DNA of 64,000 nt from the NCBI RefSeq assembly GCF_000255115.2, contig NC_018068.1, positions 4,745,977 through 4,809,976 on the forward strand. The letters are read 5' to 3'. The notes below the pieces were generated by a model, which saw only the letters and a program-made list of their open reading frames with translations, had not been told where the DNA came from and ran no database searches. This document shows positions 1,545 to 25,611 of this stretch, in pieces. The translations under genes and the position numbers were made by a program. This DNA is from Desulfosporosinus acidiphilus SJ4 (GTDB taxonomy: Bacteria; Bacillota; Desulfitobacteriia; Desulfitobacteriales; Desulfitobacteriaceae). Position 1 is the first letter of the stretch. Each line of letters begins with the position of its first letter.

Positions 1545-2243
1545 CTATATTCTCCCATTTAGTCGAGGAATTGCTAAACCATTTGCATCAAAGCAATCCA
1601 AGGCAGTGCCTTCGAATTCGTGAATTAATGCAACACGTATAATCGGCTCGTTCTTATATACATTCATCCAAACTGAGAAGAATCCCATAGCTTTTGCCGC
1701 TATGCAAATAATTCGCTTGAAATGATCTTCATAAATAGTACCTTTTGCCCTATCCCAACCGGAAAGCGTTTCTTTTGCACGGTTATAGGCATTGATGCGG
1801 CTTTTGTATCGACGATCTTTATCACTTGCGCTACACGGGATATTATCAAGCTTTAAGTCCTCAAGCATTTGTTTAGCTTGAGCATAAATTGTTTGCCCAT
1901 TTTTGCACAAGTATTCCTCGTTTATTTTGGGAATTCCACCATCATATGTAAAAGCTAAAAAAGTATTGTCTTCATCTGGCCATATCCACCTATCTTTAGG
2001 ATGGTCACCAATAATTGTTCCTTTGCGGGCATTACAATATTTACAGCCAAGCAACAAATTCTCCCAATCTGTTCTGCTTCCGCCTCTGTCTTTTGCAATA
2101 TTGTGTTCGACTTCTGGGACATGCCCAATGTTCATTTCACAATACGAGCAGTAACAGCCAATTCGTTCTTCCAAAAAAGGCAACGCCTGTGAGTATTCAC
2201 GAATTTGTTGGTAGGGAGATGCACCTTTATCTACTGGTCGCAT
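1545..2243 (-). CDS. HNH endonuclease, PtuB-like (Septu-type defence)
   Basis: 232 residues with a compact zinc-bound HNH fold: CxxC at C32-C35, EVEH around H47, a WENLLLGC segment at 60-67 and a second CxxCN at 67-71 followed by RKG. This pattern belongs to the HNH family named for retron/Septu systems (TIGR02646-like), where it acts as the effector nuclease with a partner ATPase. The ATG lies one base after the stop of the upstream ATPase gene, and the GGAGG ribosome-binding site lies inside the end of that gene, so the two are translationally coupled. Septu pairs are known anti-phage systems. I infer that role here, since no reverse transcriptase or msr-msd RNA is visible to make it a retron. 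Confidence 0.85.
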   Translation of the reverse strand: MRPVDKGASPYQQIREYSQALPFLEERIGCYCSYCEMNIGHVPEVEHNIAKDRGGSRTDWENLLLGCKYCNARKGTIIGDHPKDRWIWPDEDNTFLAFTYDGGIPKINEEYLCKNGQTIYAQAKQMLEDLKLDNIPCSASDKDRRYKSRINAYNRAKETLSGWDRAKGTIYEDHFKRIICIAAKAMGFFSVWMNVYKNEPIIRVALIHEFEGTALDCFDANGLAIPRLNGRI

Positions 2244-2244
2244 A

Positions 2245-3552
2245 CTATCCCTCCATAGTTAACTTTTTCTCTAAAAATTTCTGCTCCAAAAAAGCATAGT
2301 AGGCAACATCGCCACTATATTTTGCCGTCAATCTTTTAAGTGTTTCTTCAACTTGAGCCATTTCCTCTGGTGTTTTTACTGCATCCAAGTCCTTATAAAA
2401 TTGTTGTGCTACGGTATACATTTCTTCTTTTTCTTTGCTGTATTGCGGATTCGATACTCCCATCACATTTTCTGAAATATCTTCAATACTTTCTCCAACA
2501 TATTCCACTTCATCATCTGCGTCAGAAAGTAAAATCAACTCGTCTTCTTTAAGTGATTGGATAATAAACGGGGAGTGAGTGGTTGCGATAAACTGAATTT
2601 TTGGAAAAATAGTTTTTAAATCTGTAACTACGCTTTTTTGCCATTTGGGATGGAGATGTAAGTCAATTTCATCAATTAAGACTACACCAGGAGTTTTATC
2701 TATTGCACTTTCACCCAACTGTGGGTTTAATGTGATCATTCGTCTGCAAATGTCGACAATCAGACTAATCATACATCGATATCCATCACTTAGTTTAGAA
2801 TAAAGGATAGATAAGCCGGTTCCGTCGGTTACACATATTTCTGCAATCTTGGTATTGTACGTTACCTTCACATTAGGCATCGAGTGATTAATGCTTTTTT
2901 GTATAGCATTTAGAATAGAATTAATCTCGTGCAGGCTAGTAGGATCATCCTCACGGTACGCTAAATGAGCAATCCTGTCGATTATGTTCATGGCATCTTT
3001 TATTGAATTAGAAAAGCTAATAGACTTATTATATCCTTCTAAACGGACCTTCTCTTTTTTTATTCTACGTTCCCTCTGAATCGGTTCGTTCCAAAGTCGT
3101 GCAGAGCTATAATAAGCCACTATTGGCAAAATAATGTCTTCATCATTTCCTGAGTAGATCTTCTCGTTATATTCTTTAGACAGTCTGTTAATATACCAAA
3201 GACCACCGTGTGTAGTGCGCCCATTTCTACTGGTAATTGCGCGTTCCCATTCAATGTTTTGACCTGCAATCTCCGCCCAACATTTGACTTGAACTGGAAT
3301 CTGCTGTAGAGGTGCGGAATTAACCTTTCCAACAATTACTCTCCTATCAGATGATGCAATATTTCTTTTATCTTTGCTGTCCACTCCATTAAACGCATAC
3401 AACCAACCACCTAGCGCAACGCAAAGTCCTTCTAATATGCTAGTTTTGCCACTCCCGTTTTCCCCGGAGATAACAGAAAAGTTTTTTTTGAATTCGAATC
3501 CACGTTCTTCAAATCCGCGAAAATTTTTTAAGTACAATTTTTCTATACGCAC
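2245..3552 (-). CDS. AAA/ABC-type ATPase, PtuA-like (Septu-type defence)
   Basis: 435 residues of the OLD/RecF-like ATPase class. Walker A is GENGSGKTS at 30-38 after a KNFRGF strand typical of SMC-like heads. An ABC signature LSDGYR is at 254-259, Walker B VVLIDEIDLHLHP at 290-302, and the switch histidine motif THSP at 325-328. The start is GTG with GGGGAG nine bases upstream. It is the first gene of a two-gene operon with the HNH nuclease, the standard PtuA-PtuB order. In known Septu systems the ATPase holds the nuclease in check until phage infection. The pair ends about 1.5 kb from the window edge, and no third gene is attached. Confidence 0.85.
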   Translation of the reverse strand: MRIEKLYLKNFRGFEERGFEFKKNFSVISGENGSGKTSILEGLCVALGGWLYAFNGVDSKDKRNIASSDRRVIVGKVNSAPLQQIPVQVKCWAEIAGQNIEWERAITSRNGRTTHGGLWYINRLSKEYNEKIYSGNDEDIILPIVAYYSSARLWNEPIQRERRIKKEKVRLEGYNKSISFSNSIKDAMNIIDRIAHLAYREDDPTSLHEINSILNAIQKSINHSMPNVKVTYNTKIAEICVTDGTGLSILYSKLSDGYRCMISLIVDICRRMITLNPQLGESAIDKTPGVVLIDEIDLHLHPKWQKSVVTDLKTIFPKIQFIATTHSPFIIQSLKEDELILLSDADDEVEYVGESIEDISENVMGVSNPQYSKEKEEMYTVAQQFYKDLDAVKTPEEMAQVEETLKRLTAKYSGDVAYYAFLEQKFLEKKLTMEG

Positions 3553-4024
3553 AAGTTAACACTCCCCTCACCTTAAGTATTGTGCCCATTTTTTTCCAAT
3601 CAAATTCCCATTCCTGTCTTCAGGCACTCGCGAATACCTAAGAAAGCTAATCCGTAAAACCAAGCCAATTGAAAATAACATTAGATAAAAAGCCCAACAA
3701 CATTACAATAGTTGCTAGACTCTCTAGTTTCTGCTCTTGCTTGAATTGCTCGTTTCAATCATTAATCGACCCCAATAATTGAGTGCTATAGACCTAAAAA
3801 ATAGCATATTCCATCCGCGCCAGCACAGCTAATATAATTACCTTAATTTAGTATACTCCATAATAACGTTCCAGTCATTACGGAAATTTGCAACATAAAA
3901 AGGGGGGCAGTTCTAGCTGATCCCTTTATCATACCAACTTCCGCTAATAGACAAAACGCCAGGGTTTATGAATAGGAAATCCAAAATACTCTCATCTTAA
4001 TCGGATGCCTGGCCTATTTTCTCC
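3553..4024. other. Intergenic stretch between two defence operons
   Basis: About 470 AT-rich bases holding the upstream region of the ATPase gene and the downstream end of the helicase gene. I looked for an msr-msd-like RNA and a reverse transcriptase and saw neither, nor any frame with a ribosome-binding site. Confidence 0.5.
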
Positions 4025-7000
4025 CTACTGTCGTTTCAAGTATTTGCATACCGTTTGCACGTACGGGATATCTTTCCATATGCCATAATCTCCGATAACA
4101 CCCAAACGATATTTCGCACGGGAAACAGCAACATTAATGATGTTAGGTTTCTGACCTACCCATTGCATGGCGCCTTTCCCACTTTGTGCGTCGCAGCCAA
4201 GTACCAATAGCACTTCGTTTGCTTCCTTGCCTTGGAAGGTATGAATAGTGCCGCAGTTTTCCTTGAGCCAATCCGTGATGTCTTGAGAATTCTGCGGCAG
4301 TTTTCTCATAATCACTGGACGAATTGCATTCTTCAATGCCTGCTCCACTGAGGTAAAGGGCGTAATTATATACAGATCAGGCAGCCCGTCATAAATATCT
4401 ATCGCCTGCCCAAATAGGTTGACCACAAAGTCAATCTGTTGTTGCACCGCATGGTTCTTATTGCCTTTTTCGGCACCCTTAATATCGAACCATACCGATT
4501 GCTGCAACAGAAATTTTATCGCCGGATCCGGTTCGGCGGTTTTGGTAAACATCCTGCCGTTATAAGCCACCTCATTGGAGATTTGGAACATGGGATCAAG
4601 GCAACGGCGATGTACAATCAACGGACAGCCTAGCCATAATTTTTGGCCGTCCAGATTCCGAATGCGAATGCCGCCGAATAGGTTAAGCTGGTCAGCCAAC
4701 TCTTGTACCGACAACTCTGGTTTTCGATACTCGGACGGAATTTCGTTTTCATCGGCAAAGCGCTTTCGCAGTTCTTTGGGGATGGTGACAATCGGTTCCA
4801 CCTGCAATGGATCGCCAACAATAATGGCCTTTCGTGTTCGCCACAATGCACCCAAAGTGCTCTGCGGAGTAGCCTGACCCGCTTCGTCCACCACCAGAAT
4901 TCCCAGTTCCTCCGCCTGTACATCCTCCAAAAAGGATTGCACTGAGGCAAAGGTAGTCGATACTACTGGCACCACCAGCAACAAAGTATTGAGCAGGTCT
5001 CCATAGGCAGCCTCACAATCGCTTTTCATAAACTTGCCGTCCCACATGGCAAAGAGCCGGATCAGATTTTGTTTAACGCAATTGCTGGATAACGCAAACG
5101 CTTTGTGCAACATGAGCGCCTGATAAAACAGCTCTTCCCGTAGCTTGTCGTACTCAGCATAAGTCCACGGGCAGGCTGTTTGGGAACGCTCATTTTCACT
5201 GATATTCTGCCAGAAGGCACCATCCGCCCAGTTTCCGCCAAAGCACGCTTGGTATGGAGCGACCGCCGCATTGACAGTATGTAGTATTTGTTTCGCTTGC
5301 TGCAGTTCTCGCTCGGCTAACTGATTCTGCGTTTGCGCCGCCTGTACGACTTCCGCCTGTGCTTGGCAGGCAATCCTTTGTCGGGTAATCTGAATGACTG
5401 TATCTTGTGCGTTTTGCTCAGTTTGCTTCCATTCTTTGATGACAGAATTGTTCCTGAACAACCGCCAGAAAATCCGCTTCAAAAACGAAAGGCTGGATTG
5501 TAGTGTAATGATGTTCTGTTGCTGTAATGCCAGCTTTTTTTCCAGCCTGCACAGCTCTTGCTGCTCGGCCAGTAAACTTTCTTTCTGTCGAAAAAGTTCG
5601 ATCTGTGTCTCGTCATTCTTAATACGTGCAGCTATTTGACCTGCCGTTGCTATCTCCTGCTCGACTAGCAGAGCTTGCGCCTGTGCAATATCAATCTGTG
5701 CATCAATCACGGCTTGCAGTGCCGTCCGGAAATTCTGACGTGCCAAATTCCAATCCGGTGCATCTCCTTCATAGTAACGCTTAAGCGTCACCTCGTCATC
5801 CGCCCACCAAAGACGTTTCTTAAGAGCATTCAAATTGCTCTTCTTTCCCAGCTTAGCTGAGATAAGCCCCCACGCGGGCTCGCCCAGCAGTTTAGTTGCA
5901 ACATCAGCGAAATATGTTTCCTTATCAGTTCCATCCACCACACCGGAAAATCGTCCGGTTCGATCCTTTTCTATCGCCTTAGGCAGTTCCACTGATATGT
6001 TTTCGACAGCAGCGTTATTGTTAGATGCCACAATCATGCCATAGGCAGATAGCTTTTCGTCAAGCTTGTAGAATGTTTGATTATACTGGTCGGGCGGGTT
6101 TTTAATCTCTCTCTTTTTAAATGCTTTTTCAGGTTCATCATATTCCGTCATCAAGATTGCTCTTTGAATGATGTTGGAAACCACAATTTCCTTGAGTAGT
6201 GTAGTTTTTCCAGTTCCAGGCGGACCATTAACTGAAAAAATATCCTGCCCGCCAGCAGTAGCAATGTTGATCCCCAGCTGTTGCATCAGACTCGGGCTGT
6301 ATTGTGAAGGCCATGCGCCAAGCGGAAAAGAATCTGCTTTCAGCCACCGCTGCATCTGCGTAACATCAGTATCAATCTGTATACGCTGTATTTCGGTGCT
6401 GGGTTCAATTTTGGCCTGAACATAACATTTAATTCTTTGTGTAGGAGACTTTTGGATTTTTTTCATATCCTTAAGATAAAAGCTTTGCAACAACTCGGTG
6501 GAAGGATCCAGCGGTGGGAATTTGCCATCCTTGTTGGCGTACTGGACCTTTCGGCGTGACCACAAATCAGCGTCAAACAACTTATCATTCACCTTGATTT
6601 TCGTGCAGACCAATGCGTAAATTTTGTACAAATACTCCTTTGACATAGATGGAGCATCCTTGTCTGCATTGTCTTGTAAAAGCAAGTTATTTATCTTCTG
6701 CTGCAACGTTTCCAGCTCTGACACATCTAATTTTTTACCAAATGAACCCGCGTTAACTAGCTCGCAGATTGCCCAAACGAAACTGGAAATGGCAAAGGAA
6801 TCGGCAACATACTTCCCTTTCTCGTCAATTTTTAGGGCGCAAAGACAAACCAGCGAACTGTCATTTTCGATAGACGATCCTTCAGCGTGGAGATTCAGTG
6901 CATCCAGCATCCAAACAATCAGATCGTTAGATCGAGCCCTGCCAAAATACACATCATAACTCACCTGGATTTTGGGATCTCGTTGCGGTTGCTGCCAAGG

Positions 7001-7102
7001 CAAATCTTTCTTGGTCAGGTCAGTATCATCTTGGGGTTTGACTGGCCAGCATGGATTAAAAAACTCTAGTTCGTACCAGTATTTCAAGATTTGTTGCAAC
7101 AT
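4025..7102 (-). CDS. Superfamily 1 helicase (COG1112/Upf1-like), Mokosh-like
   Basis: 1025 residues from the ATG at 7102, chosen because GGAGGC lies eight bases upstream; a longer frame opens at 7150 without such a site. Order: a roughly 270-residue N-terminal region I do not recognise, Walker A GPPGTGKTT at about 293-301, an inserted glutamine-rich coiled coil at about 455-610, Walker B VVDEAGQAT at about 737-745, then motif V (HTFQGKEANEV) and motif VI (NVAVSRAK) near the C-terminus. These are the hallmarks of Upf1/DNA2-type SF1B helicases. The gene follows a PLD-nuclease gene by 182 bases on the same strand. COG1112 helicase plus PLD nuclease is the composition described for Mokosh anti-phage systems. 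No kinase domain is visible here, so this would be a variant. Confidence 0.8.
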   Translation of the reverse strand: MLQQILKYWYELEFFNPCWPVKPQDDTDLTKKDLPWQQPQRDPKIQVSYDVYFGRARSNDLIVWMLDALNLHAEGSSIENDSSLVCLCALKIDEKGKYVADSFAISSFVWAICELVNAGSFGKKLDVSELETLQQKINNLLLQDNADKDAPSMSKEYLYKIYALVCTKIKVNDKLFDADLWSRRKVQYANKDGKFPPLDPSTELLQSFYLKDMKKIQKSPTQRIKCYVQAKIEPSTEIQRIQIDTDVTQMQRWLKADSFPLGAWPSQYSPSLMQQLGINIATAGGQDIFSVNGPPGTGKTTLLKEIVVSNIIQRAILMTEYDEPEKAFKKREIKNPPDQYNQTFYKLDEKLSAYGMIVASNNNAAVENISVELPKAIEKDRTGRFSGVVDGTDKETYFADVATKLLGEPAWGLISAKLGKKSNLNALKKRLWWADDEVTLKRYYEGDAPDWNLARQNFRTALQAVIDAQIDIAQAQALLVEQEIATAGQIAARIKNDETQIELFRQKESLLAEQQELCRLEKKLALQQQNIITLQSSLSFLKRIFWRLFRNNSVIKEWKQTEQNAQDTVIQITRQRIACQAQAEVVQAAQTQNQLAERELQQAKQILHTVNAAVAPYQACFGGNWADGAFWQNISENERSQTACPWTYAEYDKLREELFYQALMLHKAFALSSNCVKQNLIRLFAMWDGKFMKSDCEAAYGDLLNTLLLVVPVVSTTFASVQSFLEDVQAEELGILVVDEAGQATPQSTLGALWRTRKAIIVGDPLQVEPIVTIPKELRKRFADENEIPSEYRKPELSVQELADQLNLFGGIRIRNLDGQKLWLGCPLIVHRRCLDPMFQISNEVAYNGRMFTKTAEPDPAIKFLLQQSVWFDIKGAEKGNKNHAVQQQIDFVVNLFGQAIDIYDGLPDLYIITPFTSVEQALKNAIRPVIMRKLPQNSQDITDWLKENCGTIHTFQGKEANEVLLVLGCDAQSGKGAMQWVGQKPNIINVAVSRAKYRLGVIGDYGIWKDIPYVQTVCKYLKRQ

Positions 7103-7284
7103 CCGATTGCCTCCGTATAAACTAAATTGGGTAGGTATACCCAACTTCAATTAGGGCTTTCGATTATAGACCACTAATAAAACTTGTCCACTCATTGAGC
7201 AGTACCTAAGGTATCTTGTCGTTATTAAAGGTAGATCAGAAAACACGGTTAAAGAATACATACCGATTTACTTATGTTTTTCAG

Positions 7285-8361
7285 TCAATGTTTTACTTTT
7301 TGTTCAATGATATTGATTAAATGGTGCGCAAAAGACTCGTTAAGTCTGATTTTATCGGCTCCAAAATTTAAAGCTCCGAGAGATTTGCCCCCTACATATG
7401 TGAGTTCTTTGTCGTAACCATAAGTTGATTGAGCACTTGAAAGCGTGTTATTAAATAATGACCAATTGAAACTGTATTTAGGACTGAGGTTTTCAGAATC
7501 AACTGTCCAAGGCCATCTAGTATTCTCATCAGGCGAAAGGAAAGGTTCATTTAAGACCCGAAAATACCCCAAAAGCTTAGTAGTGCCTACACCATAACAA
7601 ATAAGGATGTCTCCTGGGCGCACAGCATTAGGCTTACGCTTGGAAAAGTGCATTTCCTGTATTGTTTCACTTAGTTTTCTCGTTTCTTCAAATGGATGAT
7701 CTGAAGAACCGACAGGCTTTAGGAAGTACCTAGTATCATCTGGGAAGTCAATTTGCTCTGTGCGTGCTACCTTTGGTATTGTTACCTTCAACTTATCTCT
7801 TATGTGCTTTGTTACTTCAAGCTTAAGCTTTGGTTCTCGAATCGGTGGATTCTCTTTTGAGTAATCATCAATTGCCTTAACGATCAATTCAATCTCCTTG
7901 CCACTTAAGGGATCGCTACCTACCCTCATTAGGTCATTAATCAAATTTTGAAGTAAATCTATATCGTCAATTTCAACACCCCATTCATGGCTATATTTTA
8001 AACCATTATCAGTGAAGTTGGCTGACGTAATTATACCTTTAATTGGGCGACCATCCCTTGAAGCAATGTAAATCTTACCGTGGAGTTTATTGTCAACTCT
8101 GACCTCAAAGTTCATACTGTTTTGAACACATGAAGTACAAAATGAATATAGTGAATTTGCTTTTTTAAATAAGTCAGGAGAATCATCTTTGAGTGTCGTT
8201 AGGAGTACAATACTTTTCACTCCCAACTCTGCCACATCATGTACAAATTCATCAAATTCTTCAATTAAGAAGGGGCTTGCCAAAATCATCTGGTCAGCTG
8301 TAATAAGCATTGATTGAATGCTTTGATTGTGATTGTTTCTTATATTATCAATAATTCTCAT
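7285..8361 (-). CDS. PLD-family nuclease with C-terminal EVE/PUA-like domain
   Basis: 358 residues. Residues 1-150 form a single-motif phospholipase D fold: H94-x-K96, D103 and SANFT with N115, as in NgoFVII/BfiI-type nucleases that dimerise to build one active site. Residues about 205-345 contain KPNAVRPGDILICYGVGT and LLGYFRVL, which resemble the beta-barrel entry of EVE/PUA-like domains that read modified bases. The start ATG has GGAGG six bases upstream. The gene sits first, ahead of the SF1 helicase, and the pair has no other neighbour on its strand. My inference is a defence nuclease that senses modified DNA or RNA. The PLD call is firm; the EVE call rests on pattern only. Confidence 0.75.
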   Translation of the reverse strand: MRIIDNIRNNHNQSIQSMLITADQMILASPFLIEEFDEFVHDVAELGVKSIVLLTTLKDDSPDLFKKANSLYSFCTSCVQNSMNFEVRVDNKLHGKIYIASRDGRPIKGIITSANFTDNGLKYSHEWGVEIDDIDLLQNLINDLMRVGSDPLSGKEIELIVKAIDDYSKENPPIREPKLKLEVTKHIRDKLKVTIPKVARTEQIDFPDDTRYFLKPVGSSDHPFEETRKLSETIQEMHFSKRKPNAVRPGDILICYGVGTTKLLGYFRVLNEPFLSPDENTRWPWTVDSENLSPKYSFNWSLFNNTLSSAQSTYGYDKELTYVGGKSLGALNFGADKIRLNESFAHHLINIIEQKVKH

Positions 8362-8962
8362 TGTATACCTCCAGATATGCCTTGATCCGTATAATTAAGA
8401 AAGAGCCTTTACCTCCAAACTGATACATGAAACCTCAAGTCTTGAGTTCAAGAGCTACATTCTATCAGCGATCTGTTTTAATATCAGGTATAAACATTTG
8501 CTTTGTTCTTTCTTTCAGCCACTTAGAATTATGCACCCGTTATTAAAGTACATGCAATCGGGAGTACCACTCGCATTATTGCCAAATGTGAGTTATTCCT
8601 TCGTTATCATATATAATTTCCGCATTTTTCCTCAATTTCCTCCCAGGATATCAAAATATTCGGCAAAAACAAAAACCACAGATCGTCCAAATAAGACGTC
8701 CTGAGGTTTTCGCAGTAGCAAAGTCACTGAAGTTCTACCTTGTTTCTTACCCAATCATCGATCTTATGCTCCTACAATCCAGTTCGTTTTGCCAGACACA
8801 AGTTGTCGGAGAGTCAGTAGCCCACCTAAGACAAAGCCCATTTGAAGGTCATAAACTTTAACACAAATAGTTTCATATTTTGTAGTGGGCAATCTTTATG
8901 GATTTTTATTCAAGTTCGTTGTCTGGGAGTTTAACGAAGGCCTTTTGGACAGATAAGAACGC
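8362..8962. other. Intergenic stretch upstream of the PLD-helicase operon
   Basis: Six hundred AT-rich bases. The GGAGG site of the PLD gene lies at its left edge. A plus-strand frame at 8498-8704 has no ribosome-binding site or motif. I see no RNA gene or clear repeat. Minus-strand fragments interrupted by stops hint at a decayed gene that I cannot name. Confidence 0.45.
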
Positions 8963-9988: not shown

Positions 9989-11230
9989 TTGAGTTTATTT
10001 GTCGGTATAGATGTGAGTTCCAGTGATTTTAAAGTGCGAATCTTAGATGAGCGTGGTAATGAACCAGTTAAAAGGCTAAGGGTTTTGAATGATCAGCCTG
10101 GTTGTGAGCAAGTTGCCCGATATCTCTCTGAAGCCTGTAATAAAGAGAATGAGGACCGGCTGGTTATTGGTTTAGAGGCCACTTCCGTGTACAGTTGGCC
10201 GTTACAAATGTTCTTAGCGGAAGACCATTGTTTAGCACCTTTACAGCCCCAAATTTATTCCTTTAACCCCAAGGTCGTTGCTAATTTCAAAAAGGCTTAT
10301 GTGGACCTTCCGAAGAACGACTGGATTGATGCCTGGGTCATTGCCGAACGTTTACGCTTCGGCCGGCTCCCGGAGGGCTCTCAGGTCGATTTCCGCTACT
10401 TACCGTTACAGCGACTCACTCGCTTTCGTTGTCATCTGATCGAGATGATCTCCAGAGAGAAGAATTATTTCCTCACGAACTTGTTCTTAAAGTTTAGCAC
10501 TCTTGCCCAAGGTACGGTTTTTAGTAATACTTTCAGCGTTACTTCTGAATCCTTGACACTTGAGTTTTTTTCTCCAGAAGAGGTTGCGGCTCGACCGCTT
10601 GATGAACTGATTGATTTCCTCATGGAGAAAGGAAGAAGTCATTTCGAGGATCCGGAAGCCAAAGCCAGAGAGTTGAAGGAAGCCGCTCGCAAGGCCCATC
10701 GACTACGTGGAAGCCTATTGCAACCCATTAACCTTATCCTAGCCACGAGCATCGAAACCATCCACACTTTAGAGAAACAGGTCAAGAAAATCGATAAGGC
10801 GATCGAAGCTGAAATCAGGCATTTCCCTAATACGCTCATTACCATTCCCGGTATTGGCCCTGTGCTTTCAGCTGGTATTATTGCTGAGATTGGAGACATC
10901 CGCCGTTTTCCGAATGAAGGAGCCTTAGCAAAGTTTATTGGGCTAACCTGGCGTTCTCACCAGTCCGGTGATTTTACAGCCGATGACACGCCCTTAACTC
11001 GAACCGGCAACACCTACTTGCGAAGTTATATCATCCAGGCTGCTAACCTAGTACGCCAAAAGGAACCAGAGTACAAAGCCTTCTACCAACGTAAATTCTC
11101 GGAAAGTAAGACTCACCATCATCGCCGTGCTCTCGTGCTTACTGCACGCAAACTCGTCCGTATGGTTGATGCTCTGCTACGCAGCAACCAAATCTATATG
11201 CCACATGGCAATAGGGGGATTGCAAACTAA
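9989..11230 (+). CDS. IS110-family transposase (RNA-guided recombinase)
   Basis: 413 residues from a TTG start preceded by GAGGTGA. The N-terminal RuvC-like domain shows the DEDD set: D8 in GIDVSS, E63 in GLEATS, D111 and D114 in NDWIDAW. A helical linker follows. The C-terminal Tnp20 domain has the helix-hairpin-helix IPGIGPVLSAG and the segment RSHQSGDF, which carries the serine nucleophile expected for this family. Length and motifs are complete, so the enzyme is probably active. It catalyses cut-and-paste movement through serine chemistry directed by an element-encoded RNA, according to recent work on the family. Confidence 0.92.
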   Translation: MSLFVGIDVSSSDFKVRILDERGNEPVKRLRVLNDQPGCEQVARYLSEACNKENEDRLVIGLEATSVYSWPLQMFLAEDHCLAPLQPQIYSFNPKVVANFKKAYVDLPKNDWIDAWVIAERLRFGRLPEGSQVDFRYLPLQRLTRFRCHLIEMISREKNYFLTNLFLKFSTLAQGTVFSNTFSVTSESLTLEFFSPEEVAARPLDELIDFLMEKGRSHFEDPEAKARELKEAARKAHRLRGSLLQPINLILATSIETIHTLEKQVKKIDKAIEAEIRHFPNTLITIPGIGPVLSAGIIAEIGDIRRFPNEGALAKFIGLTWRSHQSGDFTADDTPLTRTGNTYLRSYIIQAANLVRQKEPEYKAFYQRKFSESKTHHHRRALVLTARKLVRMVDALLRSNQIYMPHGNRGIAN

Positions 11231-12946: not shown

Positions 12947-14470
12947 TTATTTACTATTATTGGTAATTTTTGGTGGAGATGACAAGGATGCATACAAACT
13001 ACCATTGTTCTGTATTTCATCCAGTAAAGACATATCAACTTGTACAGGCTGCTGATTGCTTACGTTGAAAATTACCGTTATCTTGTGACCTCCGTCATCA
13101 TTTGAATAAACATAAATACTATTAACCATCGCATTGACAAGTAGCTTTCTGTATTCCAATTCATCAAGATTTCCGTTTCGCAAGTGAGATAAAAAGTACA
13201 TAATATCGACTTCGGATAAGCCATAATGCCGCTCTTCTTCAACAGCTGTTAGTTTTTCCAGTTCTGCCGCTTCTTTTTCAAGTCTGTCAATCTCAGCAAA
13301 AACAAAGTTAGCGGCTGTTGCCGACGCTTTGCCGACCTTTAGGGATTCTAAGAGGTTGGCTTTTTGTTTGTTGTTTTCTTTCATAAGCTGTTGCAGCCTC
13401 TTCAAATTCGGGTTATTTTGCTCCTGCTCACAGAGTGCAGATATTTCGCGGGCGATTATGCGCTGATTATCCTCTGTGAGCATATCCCTTACAACTTCAA
13501 TGACTTTGTCCTCAATTTTGTGCTTGATAATGGTAAGTCTTTTACAACCTTTGTTCTCCCTATAGTATCTATGCAGTTTCCCGCTCTTGCCTGTACTGCT
13601 GCTTCCTGCCATGGGCATTAAGCAATGCCCACAAAACAGTTTACCGCTTAAAATGTAATCTTCCACAGCTTTCCCCCTCCCCCCGGCTCCGATATTCTCA
13701 ACAAGTCGTTTTTGCACCTGGTCAAATAAGGTCTGCGGAACTATGCGCGGCAATGCGTCAGTGGTGTCTGTGCCTTTATAGCTGTAAATCCCAATGTACC
13801 GCTTATTTCTTAAAATCCTCTGTAAGCTGTTTTTTGTAAATGGTCTTCCATGTGAAGTCCTCGCGCCCAAATTGTTTAGATATGCTATGATTTCCAGCAT
13901 GGTCGCACCATTGGCGTACATTTCAAAAACTCGTACAACGTAATGAGCGTTGGCTTTGTCAATGACGATTTGTTTGTCCACCACTTTGAATCCGAGGCCG
14001 GGATTACTTCCGAGGCTCAAAAACTTCGAGGCGTTGATTGCCCTTCCCCGCTGTATCTTTTGGCTTAACTCCTGTGAATAGTAAGCAGCCATCCCCTCAA
14101 GCATGGTTTCCATCAAGATACCGCTGGCGTCTTCCGTATTAACTCGTTCCATTGCAGAAATAACCTTGACGCCGTTTCTGTTCAGTTTCTCCTTGTAGAT
14201 GGCGTTGTCATATTTGTTGCGGCTGAATCGGTCGAGCTGGTATACAATGACATAATCCCACCGCCCCTTTGACGAATCTGCGATCATGCGCTGGAAGCCG
14301 AGGCGTTTTTTCGCTGTCTTCCCGGTCAGCTTTTGGTCAGTGTATTCAGTAACAATATTATATCCCTCGCGGTTGGCATAATCACGGCAGACCCTTAACT
14401 GTCCTTCTATGGATTGTGCAGTTTGTTGACCGCCGGGACTGTATCGGGCGTAAATAACTGCTTTCTTCAT
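12947..14470 (-). CDS. Large serine recombinase (site-specific integrase)
   Basis: 507 residues. The N-terminal resolvase domain has the nucleophile in YARYSP (S11) and the YQLDRFSRN arginine motif at about 78-85. The recombinase domain follows (SLGSNPGLGFKV, then GRPFTKNSLQRILRNKRYIG), then a zinc ribbon with CGHC and a later Cys, and a coiled-coil tail at about 390-430. This is the layout of integrases of conjugative transposons and phages (TndX/TnpX-like). It overlaps the XRE gene by four bases (ATGA) and is co-transcribed with it. It should integrate and excise the element that extends rightward to the relaxase gene. The attachment sites could not be identified. Confidence 0.93.
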   Translation of the reverse strand: MKKAVIYARYSPGGQQTAQSIEGQLRVCRDYANREGYNIVTEYTDQKLTGKTAKKRLGFQRMIADSSKGRWDYVIVYQLDRFSRNKYDNAIYKEKLNRNGVKVISAMERVNTEDASGILMETMLEGMAAYYSQELSQKIQRGRAINASKFLSLGSNPGLGFKVVDKQIVIDKANAHYVVRVFEMYANGATMLEIIAYLNNLGARTSHGRPFTKNSLQRILRNKRYIGIYSYKGTDTTDALPRIVPQTLFDQVQKRLVENIGAGGRGKAVEDYILSGKLFCGHCLMPMAGSSSTGKSGKLHRYYRENKGCKRLTIIKHKIEDKVIEVVRDMLTEDNQRIIAREISALCEQEQNNPNLKRLQQLMKENNKQKANLLESLKVGKASATAANFVFAEIDRLEKEAAELEKLTAVEEERHYGLSEVDIMYFLSHLRNGNLDELEYRKLLVNAMVNSIYVYSNDDGGHKITVIFNVSNQQPVQVDMSLLDEIQNNGSLYASLSSPPKITNNSK

Positions 14471-18982: not shown

Positions 18983-20445
18983 ACCTTCAGAATTTCGTTA
19001 GTAACATTTTTTGAAGATTTATGCTGCAGCTATACGTTTGAACTTGTTCAATCGGTCTACGGCTAATTTGCAGAGGGTATAGGTCAGGATAGAAAACTCG
19101 AAGTCGATTTTGGCTACGTTTCCTCGATGTCGAATGTTGTTTAACTGAAAGTACTCTTTGAGATAAGCATTAACACGTTCTACGGCTGTTCTCTGTTTAT
19201 AGAGTTCAAAGTAGCGCCCACTTCCTCTGGCTGGAACGGTGTATTTTCTGGGGTCTGAGGAAACCTTAACCTTGAATACCTTTTGACACTGGTTGTTTTC
19301 TTTCAGAGGACACTCTTTGCACTTCTTGGGTTGAGTATATTTCAACGTGTCGTATCGGGAATCATAGCTATCATATCGGTAGGAATGACCTTCTTGACAC
19401 TTAGGGCAAAAGTATTTGTCCTTGTCTTCGGGTAGTTGTTCATTGCGTGGATTGTAATCAATCAGGGCCCTTGACCCCATGGCTTTTGCTTGTTGGTAAA
19501 TTGGGCTGTAATCGTAACCAGCATCCAAAAGCGAATAGGAAGGCTTCAGCTGGGGGTGAAGTTCATGAAGAGCCTTGAGTAGAGGAATCGCCATTTTGCC
19601 ATCATTGACATTTCCCGAGGAAAGTAAGGACTTTAAAATGTATTGGCTTTTACAGTCCACGAGAAGATGACCTTTGAACCCGAACCAAAAGACGTTTTTG
19701 CCCTCGGAGTTTTTCTTAATTCCCCAGTGAGGATCTTGCGGGATTTGCTGTTCGATCGTCTTGAAATCAAGAGGAAGTTGAGCTTCAATTTTCTTCTCAA
19801 AGAGGGGTCGATTCTCTTCCAGTTCCTGTTGTTCTTTGAGCCATTTCTCCCGTTCCGATTTGGGTTTTCGTCCGCGTTTTTTGGAGGTTTGCTTGACTGG
19901 AACCTCTTCGTCTTTCTTTTTCTCAGGTTTACGGTCTCTCGCTTCAATATGAGTAGCATCGATGGCTATAACATCCCCATCGATGAAGCCTTCTTGAAAC
20001 GCCTGAGAGACTAGTTCATTTTGAATTTTTTCCAAAGCAGAAGAACCCTTGATTTTTTGAATCATTCGAGTATAAGAGGACTCGCTAGGAACTGCATCAG
20101 CCATCGTAAAGCCGCAGTCGAAACGGAATTCCAAGCTGTTTTTTAATCGTTTTCGTAAATCTTTGATCGTAGGAATTCGTTCGATCACTCGAATGAATAA
20201 AGAATAGATCATGGCTGAATAGTTAAGCGTGGTTGGAGCTCCCAAAAATGCCTTTTTTGAAACCACTCTCAACAAAGGAGTAATATTCAGCGGATCCAAT
20301 AGAAGCGGATACGATTCTTTCGGTGACATTTCTAAGATTTCTTCCAAGGAAAATAGACGTTCTTGGCGAATACTAAACATTGGGAGTTCTCCTTTCAACC
20401 TCTCGGTGTTTGTTTGGTCACTTACACTTTCGAGATTTTGGGGAG
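18983..20445 (-). mobile_element. DDE insertion sequence (IS4/IS1182-like), ends approximate
   Basis: One transposase gene flanked by imperfect terminal repeats: ACCTTCAGAATTTCG on the left near 18983, and on the right, read inward, ACCTCCCCAAAATCTCG near 20445. The similarity needs gaps, so the exact ends and the target duplication are uncertain. It sits between the relaxase gene and the HEPN operon and may have removed or separated the element's right end. Confidence 0.6.
19019..20380 (-). CDS. DDE transposase (IS4/IS1182-like, DDE_Tnp_1)
   Basis: 453 residues from the ATG at 20380, preceded by AAAGGAG. A helical N-terminal DUF772-like domain (TLNYSAMIYSLFIRVIERIP) is followed by the RNase H-like core with D in VIAIDATHIEARD, D in SLLDAGYD and E in TAVERVNAYLKEY. 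A lysine/arginine-rich insert sits after the first aspartate. Near 350-390 there is a cysteine cluster of the CPKC and CKECP type typical of this group. The frame is intact, so the element may still move. Confidence 0.88.
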   Translation of the reverse strand: MFSIRQERLFSLEEILEMSPKESYPLLLDPLNITPLLRVVSKKAFLGAPTTLNYSAMIYSLFIRVIERIPTIKDLRKRLKNSLEFRFDCGFTMADAVPSESSYTRMIQKIKGSSALEKIQNELVSQAFQEGFIDGDVIAIDATHIEARDRKPEKKKDEEVPVKQTSKKRGRKPKSEREKWLKEQQELEENRPLFEKKIEAQLPLDFKTIEQQIPQDPHWGIKKNSEGKNVFWFGFKGHLLVDCKSQYILKSLLSSGNVNDGKMAIPLLKALHELHPQLKPSYSLLDAGYDYSPIYQQAKAMGSRALIDYNPRNEQLPEDKDKYFCPKCQEGHSYRYDSYDSRYDTLKYTQPKKCKECPLKENNQCQKVFKVKVSSDPRKYTVPARGSGRYFELYKQRTAVERVNAYLKEYFQLNNIRHRGNVAKIDFEFSILTYTLCKLAVDRLNKFKRIAAA

Positions 20446-20527: not shown

Positions 20528-21225
20528 TTAAGGCGGGGTTGCGGTAGATTTCAAATATAACTTATTTTGCAATGCATCTATGATCATCTTCTTTATTTCT
20601 TCCATTACAATATACGTGGCCTTCTCAATTGAGTCGTAGTCACTTTGCTCTAATCCGTTTTTTATAGCTCCGTGAGCAATATTATTCCTATAATTGAGTA
20701 ATTGGTCAATTAATCCTTCGTGAACCTGAAAGGTATCATACTGGAAACCTAAGCGGTAAAGCATTTTACGCAAAACTAACGGTTTCAAATTTGACTCAAC
20801 ATCAACAATAGATTCAGGTATATTAATAATTTGCTGTAAGAAATTGTCGAATTCTTTTACTAAATCCACCTCACGTGCAAACCTATGCAGCTTTTCATCA
20901 TGAGGCAAAGCATTCTTAAAAACCTTACATTTTTTATCAGTGTTATTAAATGCTTTAAATACTTCCGAAAGAGATCCAGCAACCATAAAGTCATTCGCAA
21001 TAGATCTAAGAATTTTCTCTTGGTTGATCGATTTGACGTAAATTAAAAATGCAGTTTTACAAAAACCTTCATAATGTGAATAAAGCATTACAACTAAAGA
21101 CTTTCTATAAAGTCTTTTTTTTCAACGTCACTTATTTCAGAAAGCTGATTCTTTAAAAAACGAATTTCATTTTGTCTCCATGTTAGCTCTTCTTCTAATT
21201 GAGCAAGTATGTCTAATACATTCAT
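20528..21225 (-). CDS. HEPN RNase (MAE_28990/RiboL-PSP type), frameshifted in an A8 run
   Basis: The ATG at 21225 overlaps the stop of the DUF262 gene (ATGA) and encodes MNVLDILAQLEEELTWRQNE, the usual N-terminus of this family, for about 37 codons. At an A8 run (21115-21122 on the plus strand) the frame is lost and soon meets TAG. Reading one base differently gives RLYRKSLVVMLYSHYEGF, which continues without stops to 20528. So one A seems missing, or the ribosome or polymerase slips there. The C-terminal part carries the HEPN active-site motif RNNIAHG (R-x4-H). HEPN proteins of this group are RNases in toxin or defence systems. The operon partner genes are DUF262 and a DNA methyltransferase. 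Confidence 0.75.
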
Positions 21226-22364
21226 AAACCTTCGCCCACCTTAGTTTGGACAAAGTTTATCCTTTCATCCAAAGGTTTAGAATAATTCTTTCCACCACCA
21301 GTCGTAATTCTCTTAAATTGTGAATCCTGTTTAATTTCAGTAAATATTCTTGTTAATTTTTCCATGGTTGTCTTACTGGACAAATCTATTTTACTTAAAT
21401 AAGGCTGAATTCCGAGTGTAAAAGCTTCATAATGATAACTTAAAAATCTGGATACTAAAGTTCCCCTAGAATTTGTGCCAGAAAAAATGTTTGACCCTAA
21501 TGTTTCTTTCAATACTTTAAAAGTCTTTTCAAAAATAGCGTATTCTTTTTCGTAATCAAAAACGTTCGCCGTATCCTCAGGATCGGATACGCTCTCCATG
21601 TATTCGGTCATAAAGTCTTTAACATCATGAACATACTTATGTCTATAATTCTTAAAAGTAAAAAACCGTAATACCAATTCTTGGTCCTGTTTTTGTTCGA
21701 GCTTCTCTTCTGGCAAATTCTCGATACATTCTTTAAAATCTTCATTGAGGCTACATTTAATCAGAAATTTATTGAAAGTATCATCTAGTAATTTTATTGT
21801 ACAGTTTCTGATTTCTTGTTCGCTTAAGTCTTCTCCGCCTGTATTAAGTCTTTTGAACATATAATAACGAAGCCTTTGGTCAGTCTCCTTGCGTAGTACT
21901 TCAACACGTATAAAATTTCTCTTTAGTCTTATCTCTAATGCTTTAGGCAAGTCCTCGTAACCATAGCCGTTTAATTCTGGAACAATATCACAATCTGTTA
22001 ATTTAAGAAATTCGAAAGTATCATCCGAATTTTTTCGCAACGGATGTTTTCCACGAAAATGCAAGTATGACGACACCCGTTGTAGACCATCAATTAGTTC
22101 ATATACTCCTTCAGAACGTTCAATCACGAATATCGGTGGTACTGGCATTTCTAAAATTAAAGATTCTATAAATCTAGATTCACTAGCTTCTGACCATCTA
22201 AATAACCTTTGATATTCAGGATCAATTATTAGTTCTTGATCCTTATACATATCCAGAATCTCATTAAATGATAAATCTAGACTTTTAGTTCTAACCTTGT
22301 CAATCTTTTGTTCTACGGCCTTAATAAGATCTATTCCTTCAGTTTTTACGATAACGTCATCCAC
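21222..22364 (-). CDS. DUF262 (GmrSD N-terminal-like) protein
   Basis: 380 residues from a GTG with GAGGAGGG upstream. The N-terminal ParB/Srx-like DUF262 domain shows LIIDPEYQRLFRW at about 45-57 and YELIDGLQRVSSY at 88-100; the DGQQR-like motif is thought to bind or hydrolyse a nucleotide. The rest is helical and lacks the C-terminal HNH of full GmrSD/DUF1524 proteins. It lies 25 bases after the methyltransferase gene and overlaps the HEPN gene by four bases. GmrSD-type proteins cut modified DNA. With the nuclease domain absent, the linked HEPN RNase may be the effector. Confidence 0.82.
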   Translation of the reverse strand: MDDVIVKTEGIDLIKAVEQKIDKVRTKSLDLSFNEILDMYKDQELIIDPEYQRLFRWSEASESRFIESLILEMPVPPIFVIERSEGVYELIDGLQRVSSYLHFRGKHPLRKNSDDTFEFLKLTDCDIVPELNGYGYEDLPKALEIRLKRNFIRVEVLRKETDQRLRYYMFKRLNTGGEDLSEQEIRNCTIKLLDDTFNKFLIKCSLNEDFKECIENLPEEKLEQKQDQELVLRFFTFKNYRHKYVHDVKDFMTEYMESVSDPEDTANVFDYEKEYAIFEKTFKVLKETLGSNIFSGTNSRGTLVSRFLSYHYEAFTLGIQPYLSKIDLSSKTTMEKLTRIFTEIKQDSQFKRITTGGGKNYSKPLDERINFVQTKVGEGL

Positions 22365-22389
22365 TCTTTTACCCTCCTCTTTATATATG

Positions 22390-23694
22390 TCACAGTTTCC
22401 TAAATACTAAGACACTTTCAGTAGCTTTTGTATGTTTGCGGTATTTACTACCATTTTTATTAATTCCCGACATAGAATGTTTATTTGGAAAATCTGTTTT
22501 ATTTTCGAGTTTCCAAGATAATAAATTACCCATCTCATTGTAAATACTTACAATGTCCAAATGTATTTCTTTATAATACGAATCCTGTATCACAAAAATA
22601 CACTTCCCATTATGTTTGAGTGTTCGGTCTATTTCTTTTAATGACTTATAAATTCCGTTGAAATATTGTAGATAATTCTTTAAGTAATAAGACTCTGATG
22701 CTTTAGATTCATGATTACGGACTTTTTCTAGGAATTGTGAACAAACACTTCCCCAGCTCGTTTCTGTTGTTAACGCCGATTTAATTATTGTTGGAGTTCC
22801 AATCATTTCATTCCTAATTTTTTGTATGTCCTCCTTAGTTGGAAAGAAGCCCATTAGTGCTAATTCAGGAAGTGTATTTACTACATAATCAATTCTTGTA
22901 CAGTATGGTGGTGAAGTGATTACCATATCTATTTGTTTATCTGTTAGAGGTATTGATGTTGAAGATGCAACTTTTATTACTGCTCCTGGATTAGAGATAC
23001 TTGTTGTATGAGTGTCAGTAAAAGCATTTATCATTAAAATTACACTTTGTTGAAAGGAATTGCATATTTCATAAGCAGAAATTTTAACTTTTTGTTCTCC
23101 ATCTTTAGGAACTTTTATCCAGGTAGGATTGGAGCATTTATATTCTGCTAAAAAAAACTTGAGAGTTCTAAATAAAGCTACGTAGTAAAATGCAGCAAGA
23201 CTAGATATTATGTCCGAGTTTATTTCTTTTAAAAATTTGTGGCCAGTTATATCATTAATTAGCAATTGCTGAATAGCACGCTCTATATTTCTAAATCCAT
23301 TTACTGCCTCTTGAGTAAACCAGGTTTCTAATGGGTCAGTTATATCGCAAAATGATTTTCTATAGCGTCTTGCTTTTTTGATAATATCATTTGAGACACT
23401 AAAGAGACTATCTTTAACACTATGTTCGAGTCTTTTGGCTTTAGCAATGATAATCATAACGGGGTTTATGTCATATCCATAAGAAATATAACCCATTTCT
23501 TCAGCAATCTGCGTAGTAGTACCACTGCCATTCCAAGGGTCCATTATTGAAGAACCTACTGGTAGATTACTGTTTAAAATAGATTCGCGGACAAATTGTG
23601 CTGAATAACTGGCATAGTAGTCATACCATGTAGACTTACCTACCTTTCCCCCAATGGTTCTTTTGGGATTTTGTATCATGAATAAATTGCTCAT
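22390..23694 (-). CDS. Site-specific DNA methyltransferase
   Basis: 434 residues. The SAM-binding motif I (IMDPWNGSGTT, 50-60) comes before the catalytic motif IV (ITSPPYCTRIDY, 259-270), with a motif X-like segment (STWYDYYASYSAQFVRE) ahead of motif I. SPPY suits N4-cytosine or N6-adenine methylation of DNA. The start ATG has GGAG about ten bases upstream. It is the first gene of an operon with DUF262 and HEPN genes and no recognisable restriction endonuclease. The methylation may mark self-DNA for the DUF262 sensor, or modify a target that triggers it. Specificity is unknown. Confidence 0.85.
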   Translation of the reverse strand: MSNLFMIQNPKRTIGGKVGKSTWYDYYASYSAQFVRESILNSNLPVGSSIMDPWNGSGTTTQIAEEMGYISYGYDINPVMIIIAKAKRLEHSVKDSLFSVSNDIIKKARRYRKSFCDITDPLETWFTQEAVNGFRNIERAIQQLLINDITGHKFLKEINSDIISSLAAFYYVALFRTLKFFLAEYKCSNPTWIKVPKDGEQKVKISAYEICNSFQQSVILMINAFTDTHTTSISNPGAVIKVASSTSIPLTDKQIDMVITSPPYCTRIDYVVNTLPELALMGFFPTKEDIQKIRNEMIGTPTIIKSALTTETSWGSVCSQFLEKVRNHESKASESYYLKNYLQYFNGIYKSLKEIDRTLKHNGKCIFVIQDSYYKEIHLDIVSIYNEMGNLLSWKLENKTDFPNKHSMSGINKNGSKYRKHTKATESVLVFRKL

Positions 23695-24618: not shown

Positions 24619-24969
24619 TGGTGGAGGCGAGGGGACTTGCACCCCTGTATCGAAGAACAGCCACAAAAGCGTCTACGCGTGTGTCCTTTAATTTAAGTTT
24701 CGCCTTTCGTGCCTCCTAAAGGCAAGGATTCATTTCAGGCTAGCTCGATCATCTTAGCTAACGTCTCCGAGCATTGACATTAGAGCGTCCTACTATTTTG
24801 ACACCCTGACCCTTCACCGTAGGTCAGAAGGCAGGATGCTAGCGGCACTTAGGCAGCTAGAGCGAAATTATCTTCGTTAACTATTTTGGTCCACCGTTTA
24901 ACGAGACCAGGTGGAATCTCGACGCGCAACTCTTGCCACCGCTTCCCCGAGCGAGTCTAAAACGCCCCC
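24619..24969 (-). ncRNA. ssrA: Transfer-messenger RNA (tmRNA)
   Basis: On the minus strand the RNA starts GGGGGCG at 24969 and ends CGCCTCC-ACCA at 24619. These ends pair as the acceptor stem, and the 3' CCA is encoded. A T-arm-like hairpin (GGGG-TGCAAGT-CCCC) precedes the 3' end. The tag frame ends AAC GAA GAT AAT TTC GCT CTA GCT GCC TAA, giving NEDNFALAA, with a possible extra V at the resume codon. With SmpB, encoded next to it, the RNA rescues stalled ribosomes and tags the products for proteolysis. Length 351 bases is normal. Its 3' end borders the accessory island. Confidence 0.93.
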
Positions 24970-25140: not shown

Positions 25141-25611
25141 TTAATAATCCTTATTCCTTTCTTTAAGCGCTCTTTCAATTTCCCGTTTGCTTTCACGTTC
25201 TGCGAGGGACTGACGCTTGTCATAATTCTTCTTGCCTTGGGCGACTCCCAATTCAACTTTTGCCAAACCTCTTTTTAAATAAATCTTGACCGGTACCAAG
25301 GTTAGCCCTTGCTGCTGTATTTTTCCGACAAGTTTATTGATTTCCGACCGGTGCAATAGTAATTTTCTAGGCCTCAAAGGGTCGTGATTAAAACGATTTC
25401 CTTGTTCATAAGGACTAATATGCATTTGATAAACCCAAATCTCACCATTATTCAAATTGGCGTAACTGTCTTTTAAATTAGCTCTTCCGTTCCTGATGGA
25501 TTTAATTTCAGTCCCGGTAAGAATGATTCCGGCTTCGATACGCTCTTCAATAAAATAATCATGGAAAGCTTTGCGGTTTTCAGAAACAACTTTAATTCCT
25601 TCAGAAGGCAT
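25141..25611 (-). CDS. smpB: SsrA-binding protein SmpB
   Basis: 156 residues of the usual length, with the OB-fold core ([50 protein letters not shown]) and the basic C-terminal tail that folds in the mRNA channel ([20 protein letters not shown]). It binds tmRNA and brings it to stalled ribosomes. ssrA lies 171 bases downstream on the same strand, so both partners of trans-translation are encoded together. The usual neighbour rnr (RNase R) is not between it and the esterase gene. Confidence 0.96.

What the first reader, a model, noticed from the sequence alone, without database searches (positions are those of the whole stretch)
4025..8361. Split Mokosh-like pair: PLD nuclease with EVE-like domain plus Upf1-type helicase
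COG1112-type helicase and PLD nuclease are the two parts of Mokosh. Here they are separate, the helicase has no kinase domain I can see but has a long coiled-coil insert, and the nuclease has an added EVE/PUA-like domain that in other proteins reads modified bases. That suggests a modification-sensing variant.
Basis: partly seen in the sequence, partly recalled or inferred. Interest (0 to 1): 0.68.

Follow-up and report, generated by a model that had tools for sequence, protein, structure and literature searches.

The report
PLD-EVE nuclease beside an unrelated helicase
Two genes that looked like one split phage-defence system are most likely separate pieces of cargo in a defence island: one is a DNA-cutting enzyme fused to a domain of the kind that reads chemically modified bases (an already predicted sort of restriction enzyme), the other a stand-alone helicase.

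Summary
Both genes are real. Window 4025-7102 (-) encodes a Upf1-like SF1 helicase resembling MkoC but without MkoC's nuclease end or any kinase. The pairing is not supported: none of 25 distinct PLD-EVE loci has this helicase beside it, including relatives 90% and 84% identical (one weak, distant helicase hit in L030). The closest full-length helicase found (67%) lies in a genome without PLD-EVE. A decayed tyrosine-recombinase fragment and a promoter-like site lie between the genes, and their GC differs (0.37, 0.46). Best reading: PLD-EVE is a single-gene, modification-dependent (type IV-like) restriction enzyme; the helicase is a separate orphan. EVE-PLDc fusions were already predicted as such (PMC7641849); I found no biochemical study of one in the papers searched. 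Against this: somewhere in the genome, the helicase family occurs in 4 of 24 PLD-EVE genomes or records, above a phylum background (2 of 298) but not significantly above the class (6 of 81).

The parts
7285..8361 (-). PLD-EVE protein, 358 aa, predicted modification-dependent nuclease
   Evidence: ORF; PF09565 and PF13091; model pLDDT 81.8, pTM 0.49; fold matches
7894..8361 (-). PLD nuclease domain, aa 1-156; H94 (codon 8080-8082), K96, N115, E126 invariant
   Evidence: 22 of 22 aligned proteins; SauUSI Z 16.4, NgoAVII R Z 13.8, BfiI Z 13.2
7291..7734 (-). EVE/YTH-fold domain, aa 210-357
   Evidence: isolated-domain model pLDDT 89.8, pTM 0.87; PH1033 (1wmm) Z 12.3, rmsd 2.7, 121 aligned; top Foldseek hit THYN1 with 5mC DNA, E 1.1e-3, none below 0.001
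7176..7284 (+). decayed 5' fragment of a tyrosine-recombinase gene in the gap between the two genes
   Evidence: 87-91% identical DNA at 6 other places, 73% at a seventh; at L120:1186-2040 it is the start of a 284-aa ORF that matches Phage_integrase 3.5e-31 and Phage_int_SAM_1
7163..7190 (-). promoter-like site before the helicase gene, 11 of 12 consensus bases
   Evidence: best of 19 sites found in 6 kb; shuffles give mean 13.0, sd 3.8 sites
4025..7102 (-). Upf1-like SF1 helicase, 1025 aa, MkoC-like core without PLD or kinase
   Evidence: stand-alone homologues
5273..5752 (-). helicase insert, aa 451-610, probable coiled coil
   Evidence: almost no Pro/Gly over 160 residues; variable among homologues
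1545..3552 (-). Septu PtuA (2245-3552) and PtuB (1545-2243); separate neighbouring system
   Evidence: PADLOC PtuA 451 bits, PtuB 234 bits

Best explanation
The PLD-EVE gene is a self-contained, single-gene restriction module. Two subunits would pair through their PLD domains to make one HxK active site (as in BfiI, NgoAVII-R and SauUSI); the EVE domains would flip out and bind a modified base, most likely 5mC or 5hmC and less likely 6mA, in incoming phage or plasmid DNA and license cleavage nearby. The helicase next door is an unrelated orphan that came to lie beside it through mobile-element rearrangement in an island next to the tmRNA gene. Shown here: domains, invariant catalytic residues, predicted folds, lack of conserved linkage, recombinase debris between the genes. 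Inferred: dimerisation, modified-base specificity, DNA rather than RNA as target, independence from ATP and from a methyltransferase, and defence function.
For: PLD fold closest to restriction enzymes, SauUSI first. EVE/YTH fold of the isolated domain. Catalytic residues invariant in 22 of 22. No helicase of this family beside it in 25 distinct loci. Neighbours vary: Thoeris ThsA and ThsB in L025, AbiU-like in L017, PDC-S06 in L032, SbcCD-like in L012, a PIN protein in L021. DNA shared with the 90% relative covers only window 7291-8580, with the 84% relative 7291-8376. Recombinase remnant in the gap. Promoter-like site for the helicase. GC 0.369 and GC3 0.318 versus 0.463 and 0.497 for the helicase. 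Nine of nine full-length helicase homologues scanned have no PLD or kinase family, whereas the more distant helicase L098 does show PLDc_2. EVE-PLDc fusions are predicted type IV enzymes (PMC7641849, passages).
Against: No sequence-profile support for EVE in most members and no Foldseek match at E<=0.001 for the isolated domain; EVE and YTH are nearly tied by Z, so the base read is open. Somewhere in the genome, a helicase of the family (E<1e-60) is present in 4 of 24 PLD-EVE genomes or records against 2 of 298 other phylum genomes (Fisher p 0.0003) and 6 of 81 other class genomes (p 0.23); one search scored at most 2 candidates per genome, so its background may be too low, and taxon and genome size are confounded. 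NgoAVII-like PLD proteins need an ATPase partner, so ATP independence is not assured. Defence context is uneven: of 10 neighbour proteins scanned, 4 had no PADLOC match and 2 only weak ones. L030, L034, L039 and L040 have no full-length PLD-EVE ORF.
Confidence: 0.72

Rival explanations
1. The two proteins form one ATP-dependent modification-sensing system: the EVE domain marks the target, the Upf1-like helicase translocates, and the PLD dimer cuts, as a split Mokosh or a CglI-like complex.
For: Same strand, 182-bp gap; helicase matches MkoC; a helicase-PLD fusion of a more distant branch exists in the same genus (L098); PLD restriction proteins with ATPase partners are known (PMC4267653, passages); raised genome-level presence against the phylum (4 of 24 versus 2 of 298).
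Against: No linkage in 25 distinct loci; closest full-length helicase relative found has no PLD-EVE in its genome; own promoter-like site, recombinase debris and different GC; the class-level background does not differ significantly.
Confidence: 0.07
2. The PLD-EVE protein targets modified RNA (YTH-like reading of m6A, or tRNA), acting as an abortive-infection RNase rather than a DNA restriction enzyme.
For: YTH domains fit nearly as well as EVE (Z about 11 versus 12.3); Zucchini-type PLD proteins appear among the fold matches.
Against: The best PLD match and the Pfam family are DNA restriction enzymes; Pastor et al. state that RNA-directed activity of PUA-nuclease fusions lacked experimental evidence (PMC7897488, passages).
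Confidence: 0.1
3. The C-terminal domain serves as ordinary sequence recognition, as the B3 domain does in BfiI, so the enzyme is type II-like rather than modification-dependent.
For: Same PLD-plus-C-terminal-reader layout as BfiI and NgoAVII-R.
Against: The rows shown for the isolated domain are EVE or YTH proteins (the EVE label of four of them is recalled). Neighbour clustering shows only one methyltransferase-like cluster, c11, in 2 loci, L012 and L036; methyltransferases were not searched for by family.
Confidence: 0.08

Closest known systems
EVE-PLDc fusion proteins predicted as type IV restriction enzymes (Bell et al. 2020, PMC7641849; passages read)
   Same: Same two domains fused in one protein, in prokaryotes
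   Different: No difference found; whether this exact family was in their set was not checked (supplements not available)
SauUSI (PMC7913695, passages; structure 7clg)
   Same: Best fold match of the PLD part (Z 16.4); type IV; dimer through PLD domains
   Different: SauUSI carries its own SF2 ATPase and an SRA-type reader in one chain; ours has no ATPase and an EVE/YTH-fold reader
VcaM4I, EVE-HNH (PMC7897488, passages)
   Same: EVE reader plus nuclease in a single gene; 6yex among the fold matches
   Different: HNH instead of PLD nuclease; EVE at the N-terminus
PLD-wH endonucleases Aba4572I and CbaI (PMC11037411, abstract and passages)
   Same: PLD nuclease fused to a modification reader without NTPase
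   Different: Winged helix reading Gm6ATC instead of EVE; not purified in that study
CglI/NgoAVII R-proteins and BfiI (PMC4267653, passages)
   Same: PLD plus C-terminal DNA-reading domain; PLD fold
   Different: B3 reader, sequence-specific; CglI and NgoAVII need an SF2 ATPase and have a methyltransferase
Mokosh type II, MkoC (definition from PMC10740426, passages; PADLOC model)
   Same: Helicase core (212.5 bits)
   Different: No C-terminal nuclease in our helicase

Membership tests
Mokosh type II (MkoC) | Helicase core of the MkoC model | tested here: met
   212.5 bits, model 239-947 of 1136; whether this passes PADLOC's own cut-off is not shown
[quoted passage not shown]
   No PLD family in the helicase at E<=1; match ends at model 947; none in 9 of 9 homologues
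Mokosh type I (MkoA+MkoB) | Helicase with serine/threonine kinase domain (recalled) | tested here: not met
   No kinase family among the 21 Pfam families at E<=1
Mokosh type I (MkoA+MkoB) | Partner nuclease recognised as MkoB | tested here: inconclusive
   The PLD protein's 9 PADLOC matches are DrmC, ZacB and REase_II, none MkoB; I did not verify that an MkoB model is held
Mokosh type I (MkoA+MkoB) | Helicase and nuclease genes conserved as neighbours | tested here: not met
   0 of 25 distinct PLD-EVE loci carry this helicase nearby; one weak 23% hit in L030, 4.6 kb downstream
EVE-PLDc predicted type IV restriction enzyme | PLD nuclease domain with catalytic HxK | tested here: met
EVE-PLDc predicted type IV restriction enzyme | EVE domain in the same chain | tested here: met
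   By predicted fold: (YTH about 1 Z lower); weak by sequence:
EVE-PLDc predicted type IV restriction enzyme | Cleaves modified DNA | not testable with these tools
   needs biochemistry
CglI/NgoAVII | C-terminal B3 domain | tested here: inconclusive
   The 50 rows shown for the isolated domain are EVE or YTH proteins, which does not exclude B3
CglI/NgoAVII | SF2 (DEAD) ATPase partner with Z1 domain | tested here: not met
   The neighbour matches AAA_11, AAA_12 and Viral_helicase1 (SF1) and no Z1 family among 21 at E<=1

The most novel reading that the evidence does not exclude
The PLD-EVE protein is a metal- and NTP-independent, BfiI-like modification-dependent restriction enzyme that in this strain has also gained an ATP-driven partner (the Upf1-like helicase), giving a two-gene modification-sensing nuclease-helicase system not described before.
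Probability: 0.05. Interest if true: 0.6.

Novelty: new member of a known kind. Interest (0 to 1): 0.27.

Why it matters
It shows that an apparent nuclease-helicase 'pair' in a defence island can be an accident of mobile-element rearrangement. It also gives a compact PLD-EVE family (21 homologues aligned to the window protein) for testing an architecture that has been predicted but for which I found no biochemical report. Metal-independent cutters of modified bases would also be useful tools.

Tried and rejected
Rejected: split Mokosh (no linkage, missing nuclease end and kinase). Rejected: a conserved partner gene of PLD-EVE. Neighbour clustering over 26 locus records gave small groups: the largest is a 104-120-aa ORF of unknown function in 6 loci (L023, L024, L025, L026, L027, L029), next to PLD-EVE in 5 of them; then large serine-recombinase relatives in 4 of these Bacilli loci, clustering with the window's own recombinase (12947-14470).

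Led nowhere: viral-contig scan with the PLD protein (4 pattern matches, no relative); phages collection (no match); PDB sequence search with the isolated C-terminal profile (only a meaningless hit); Pfam EVE search in 40 related genomes (0 of 40), so no profile-profile EVE test was made; PHROGs (none for the PLD protein). B3 domains do not appear among the rows shown. The fold searches rank EVE and YTH together, so I did not choose a base from the fold.

'No biochemical study of a PLD-EVE enzyme found' rests, open-licence library only; the terms PLD-EVE and EVE-PLD occurred in none of the 10 papers listed.

One search used two short PLD motifs, so it favours close relatives. In one search, L021 was not held, so 24 of 25 named loci were searched. 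Only 10 neighbour proteins, from 8 loci, were scanned by family. ORFs over the recombinase-fragment copies were looked for in 5 places: L120 (284 aa), L126 (208 aa) and L121 (133 aa) have one, L122 and L123 have none over 80 aa, so most copies elsewhere are also reduced.
Full report
Observation. Two intact genes lie on the minus strand: PLD-EVE (7285-8361) and, 182 bp downstream, a helicase (4025-7102; the listed TTG start at 7150 is less likely than the ATG at 7102 with its SD-like sequence). Pfam gives the first PF09565 (NgoFVII restriction endonuclease PLD domain, 1.3e-8) and PF13091, and the second AAA_11 and AAA_12. PADLOC gives the helicase MkoC at 212.5 bits over model positions 239-947 of 1136, and the PLD protein only weak DrmC, ZacB and REase_II matches.

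Anatomy of the PLD-EVE protein. In 22 aligned proteins H94, K96, N115 and E126 are invariant, as are K215, P216, G218, D251, R282, W283, W285 and W300 in the second domain. A model from 21 sequences has pLDDT 81.8 and pTM 0.49, so the arrangement of the domains is not reliable. The PLD part matches SauUSI (Z 16.4, rmsd 2.8, 155 aligned; the aligned range runs on to residue 333), NucT (14.5), NgoAVII-R (13.8) and BfiI (13.2) (Foldseek). The C-terminal domain predicted alone has pLDDT 89.8 and pTM 0.87. Its best matches are PH1033 (1wmm, Z 12.3, rmsd 2.7, 121 aligned), MJECL36 and Leishmania 2ar1, which I recall as EVE proteins (the titles do not say so), with YTH domains about 1 Z lower. Foldseek puts THYN1 bound to 5mC DNA first (E 1.1e-3, nothing below 0.001) and lists VcaM4I at rank 17. 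Sequence profiles barely see EVE: 1 of 21 members at E 0.031, 1 of 21 isolated domains at 0.011, none in the PDB sequence search.

Is it a pair? PLD-EVE was sought in contigs of one genome for each of 84,980 species (24 confirmed loci of 44 pattern matches), in plasmids (one, Priestia), in 299 genomes of the phylum (2 full-length including the window, plus one partial PLD match) and in 82 of the class (the window and G314). The helicase is beside none; the only hit is a 23%-identical helicase 4.6 kb downstream in L030. Every locus reaches at least 1.3 kb past the PLD-EVE gene, far enough to show a helicase starting 182 bp away; most hold 8 kb on each side. The neighbours include Thoeris, an AbiU-like gene and PDC-S06, an SbcCD-like pair and a PIN protein; of the 10 neighbour proteins scanned, 4 had no PADLOC match and 2 only weak ones.

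The helicase elsewhere. Its closest full-length relative found (67%, G301) lies near a phage-type integrase, and G301 has no PLD-EVE. The other homologues looked at have no PLD-EVE homologue in the stretches fetched. Nine full-length homologues, from L013, L014, L015, L016, L071, L072, L074, L093 and L094, show helicase families but no PLD or kinase family (9 of 9). As a positive control, the more distant helicase in L098 carries PLDc_2 at its C-terminus.

How the two came together. DNA identity with the Desulfosporosinus relative (90%) spans window 7291-8580, and with the Ruminiclostridium relative (85% by blastn) 7291-8376: it stops at the end of the PLD-EVE gene. The DNA next to it, 7176-7284, is 87-91% identical to 6 other places and 73% to a seventh, in genomes of the genus and elsewhere in this one. 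At one of them, L120:1186-2040, it begins a 284-aa ORF that matches Phage_integrase at 3.5e-31; two other copies have shorter ORFs and two of five examined none. In the window the fragment is on the plus strand and broken. A promoter-like site of 11 of 12 bases for the helicase overlaps it. GC and GC3 are 0.369 and 0.318 for PLD-EVE, close to Septu (0.382; PtuA GC3 0.326), but 0.463 and 0.497 for the helicase. The simplest account is two separately acquired genes. Large serine recombinases that cluster with the window's own (12947-14470; Resolvase and Recombinase) lie about 1 kb upstream of PLD-EVE in 4 Bacilli loci, which fits travel on mobile elements.

Result against this reading. A helicase of the family at E<1e-60 is present somewhere in 4 of 24 genomes or records holding PLD-EVE, compared with 2 of 298 other phylum genomes and 6 of 81 other class genomes; Fisher p is 0.0003 and 0.23, and 0.37 when the genome shared with the class set is left out. 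One search scored at most 2 candidates per genome while searches scored nearly all or all, so the phylum background may be too low; taxon and genome size are also confounded. For 3 of the 4 the contig lengths show the helicase on another contig than PLD-EVE (L018, L019, L024).

Mechanism. By family knowledge, PLD restriction enzymes dimerise to form one HxK active site and can cut without metal (BfiI), sometimes needing an ATPase (NgoAVII, SauUSI) (PMC4267653 and PMC7913695, passages; PMC11037411, passages). EVE domains flip a 5mC or 5hmC base into a hydrophobic pocket (VcaM4I, PMC7897488, passages). Together they suggest a modification-dependent endonuclease. Bell et al. report numerous EVE-PLDc fusions among putative type IV enzymes (PMC7641849, passages). 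A sister architecture, PLD-wH, showed Dam-dependent toxicity but could not be purified (PMC11037411, abstract and passages).

Island. A tmRNA gene (24619-24969, -) and smpB (25141-25611) border a 24-kb stretch with a large serine recombinase, an IS110-type and a DDE transposase (9989-11230, 19019-20398), a GmrSD_N protein beside a DNA methylase (21222-23694) and Septu PtuA/PtuB.

Noticed in passing
1545-3552: Septu pair PtuA/PtuB directly downstream of the helicase (PADLOC 451 and 234 bits).
   Followed up: partly
24619-24969: tmRNA gene found by Rfam (135 bits) but missed by ARAGORN; the island lies beside it.
   Followed up: partly
8612-8854 and 3832-3958: Two further intergenic stretches with short similar pieces in many genomes of the genus; no ORF over 80 aa over them in the five loci checked. 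Nature unknown.
   Followed up: partly
L096:2769-7202: A helicase homologue of 1477 aa with an extra C-terminal part of about 230 residues that matches no Pfam family at 0.001, in the genome that also holds the 90% PLD-EVE relative.
   Followed up: partly
L071:5387-8578: A second, 30%-identical full-length helicase paralogue in the window's own genome.
   Followed up: partly
21222-23694: GmrSD_N-domain protein next to a DNA methylase (PF03235, PF01555), perhaps another restriction module.
   Followed up: partly
L023:7538-7900 and five relatives: A 104-120-aa ORF of unknown function in 6 Bacilli PLD-EVE loci, immediately upstream of PLD-EVE in 5.
   Followed up: no
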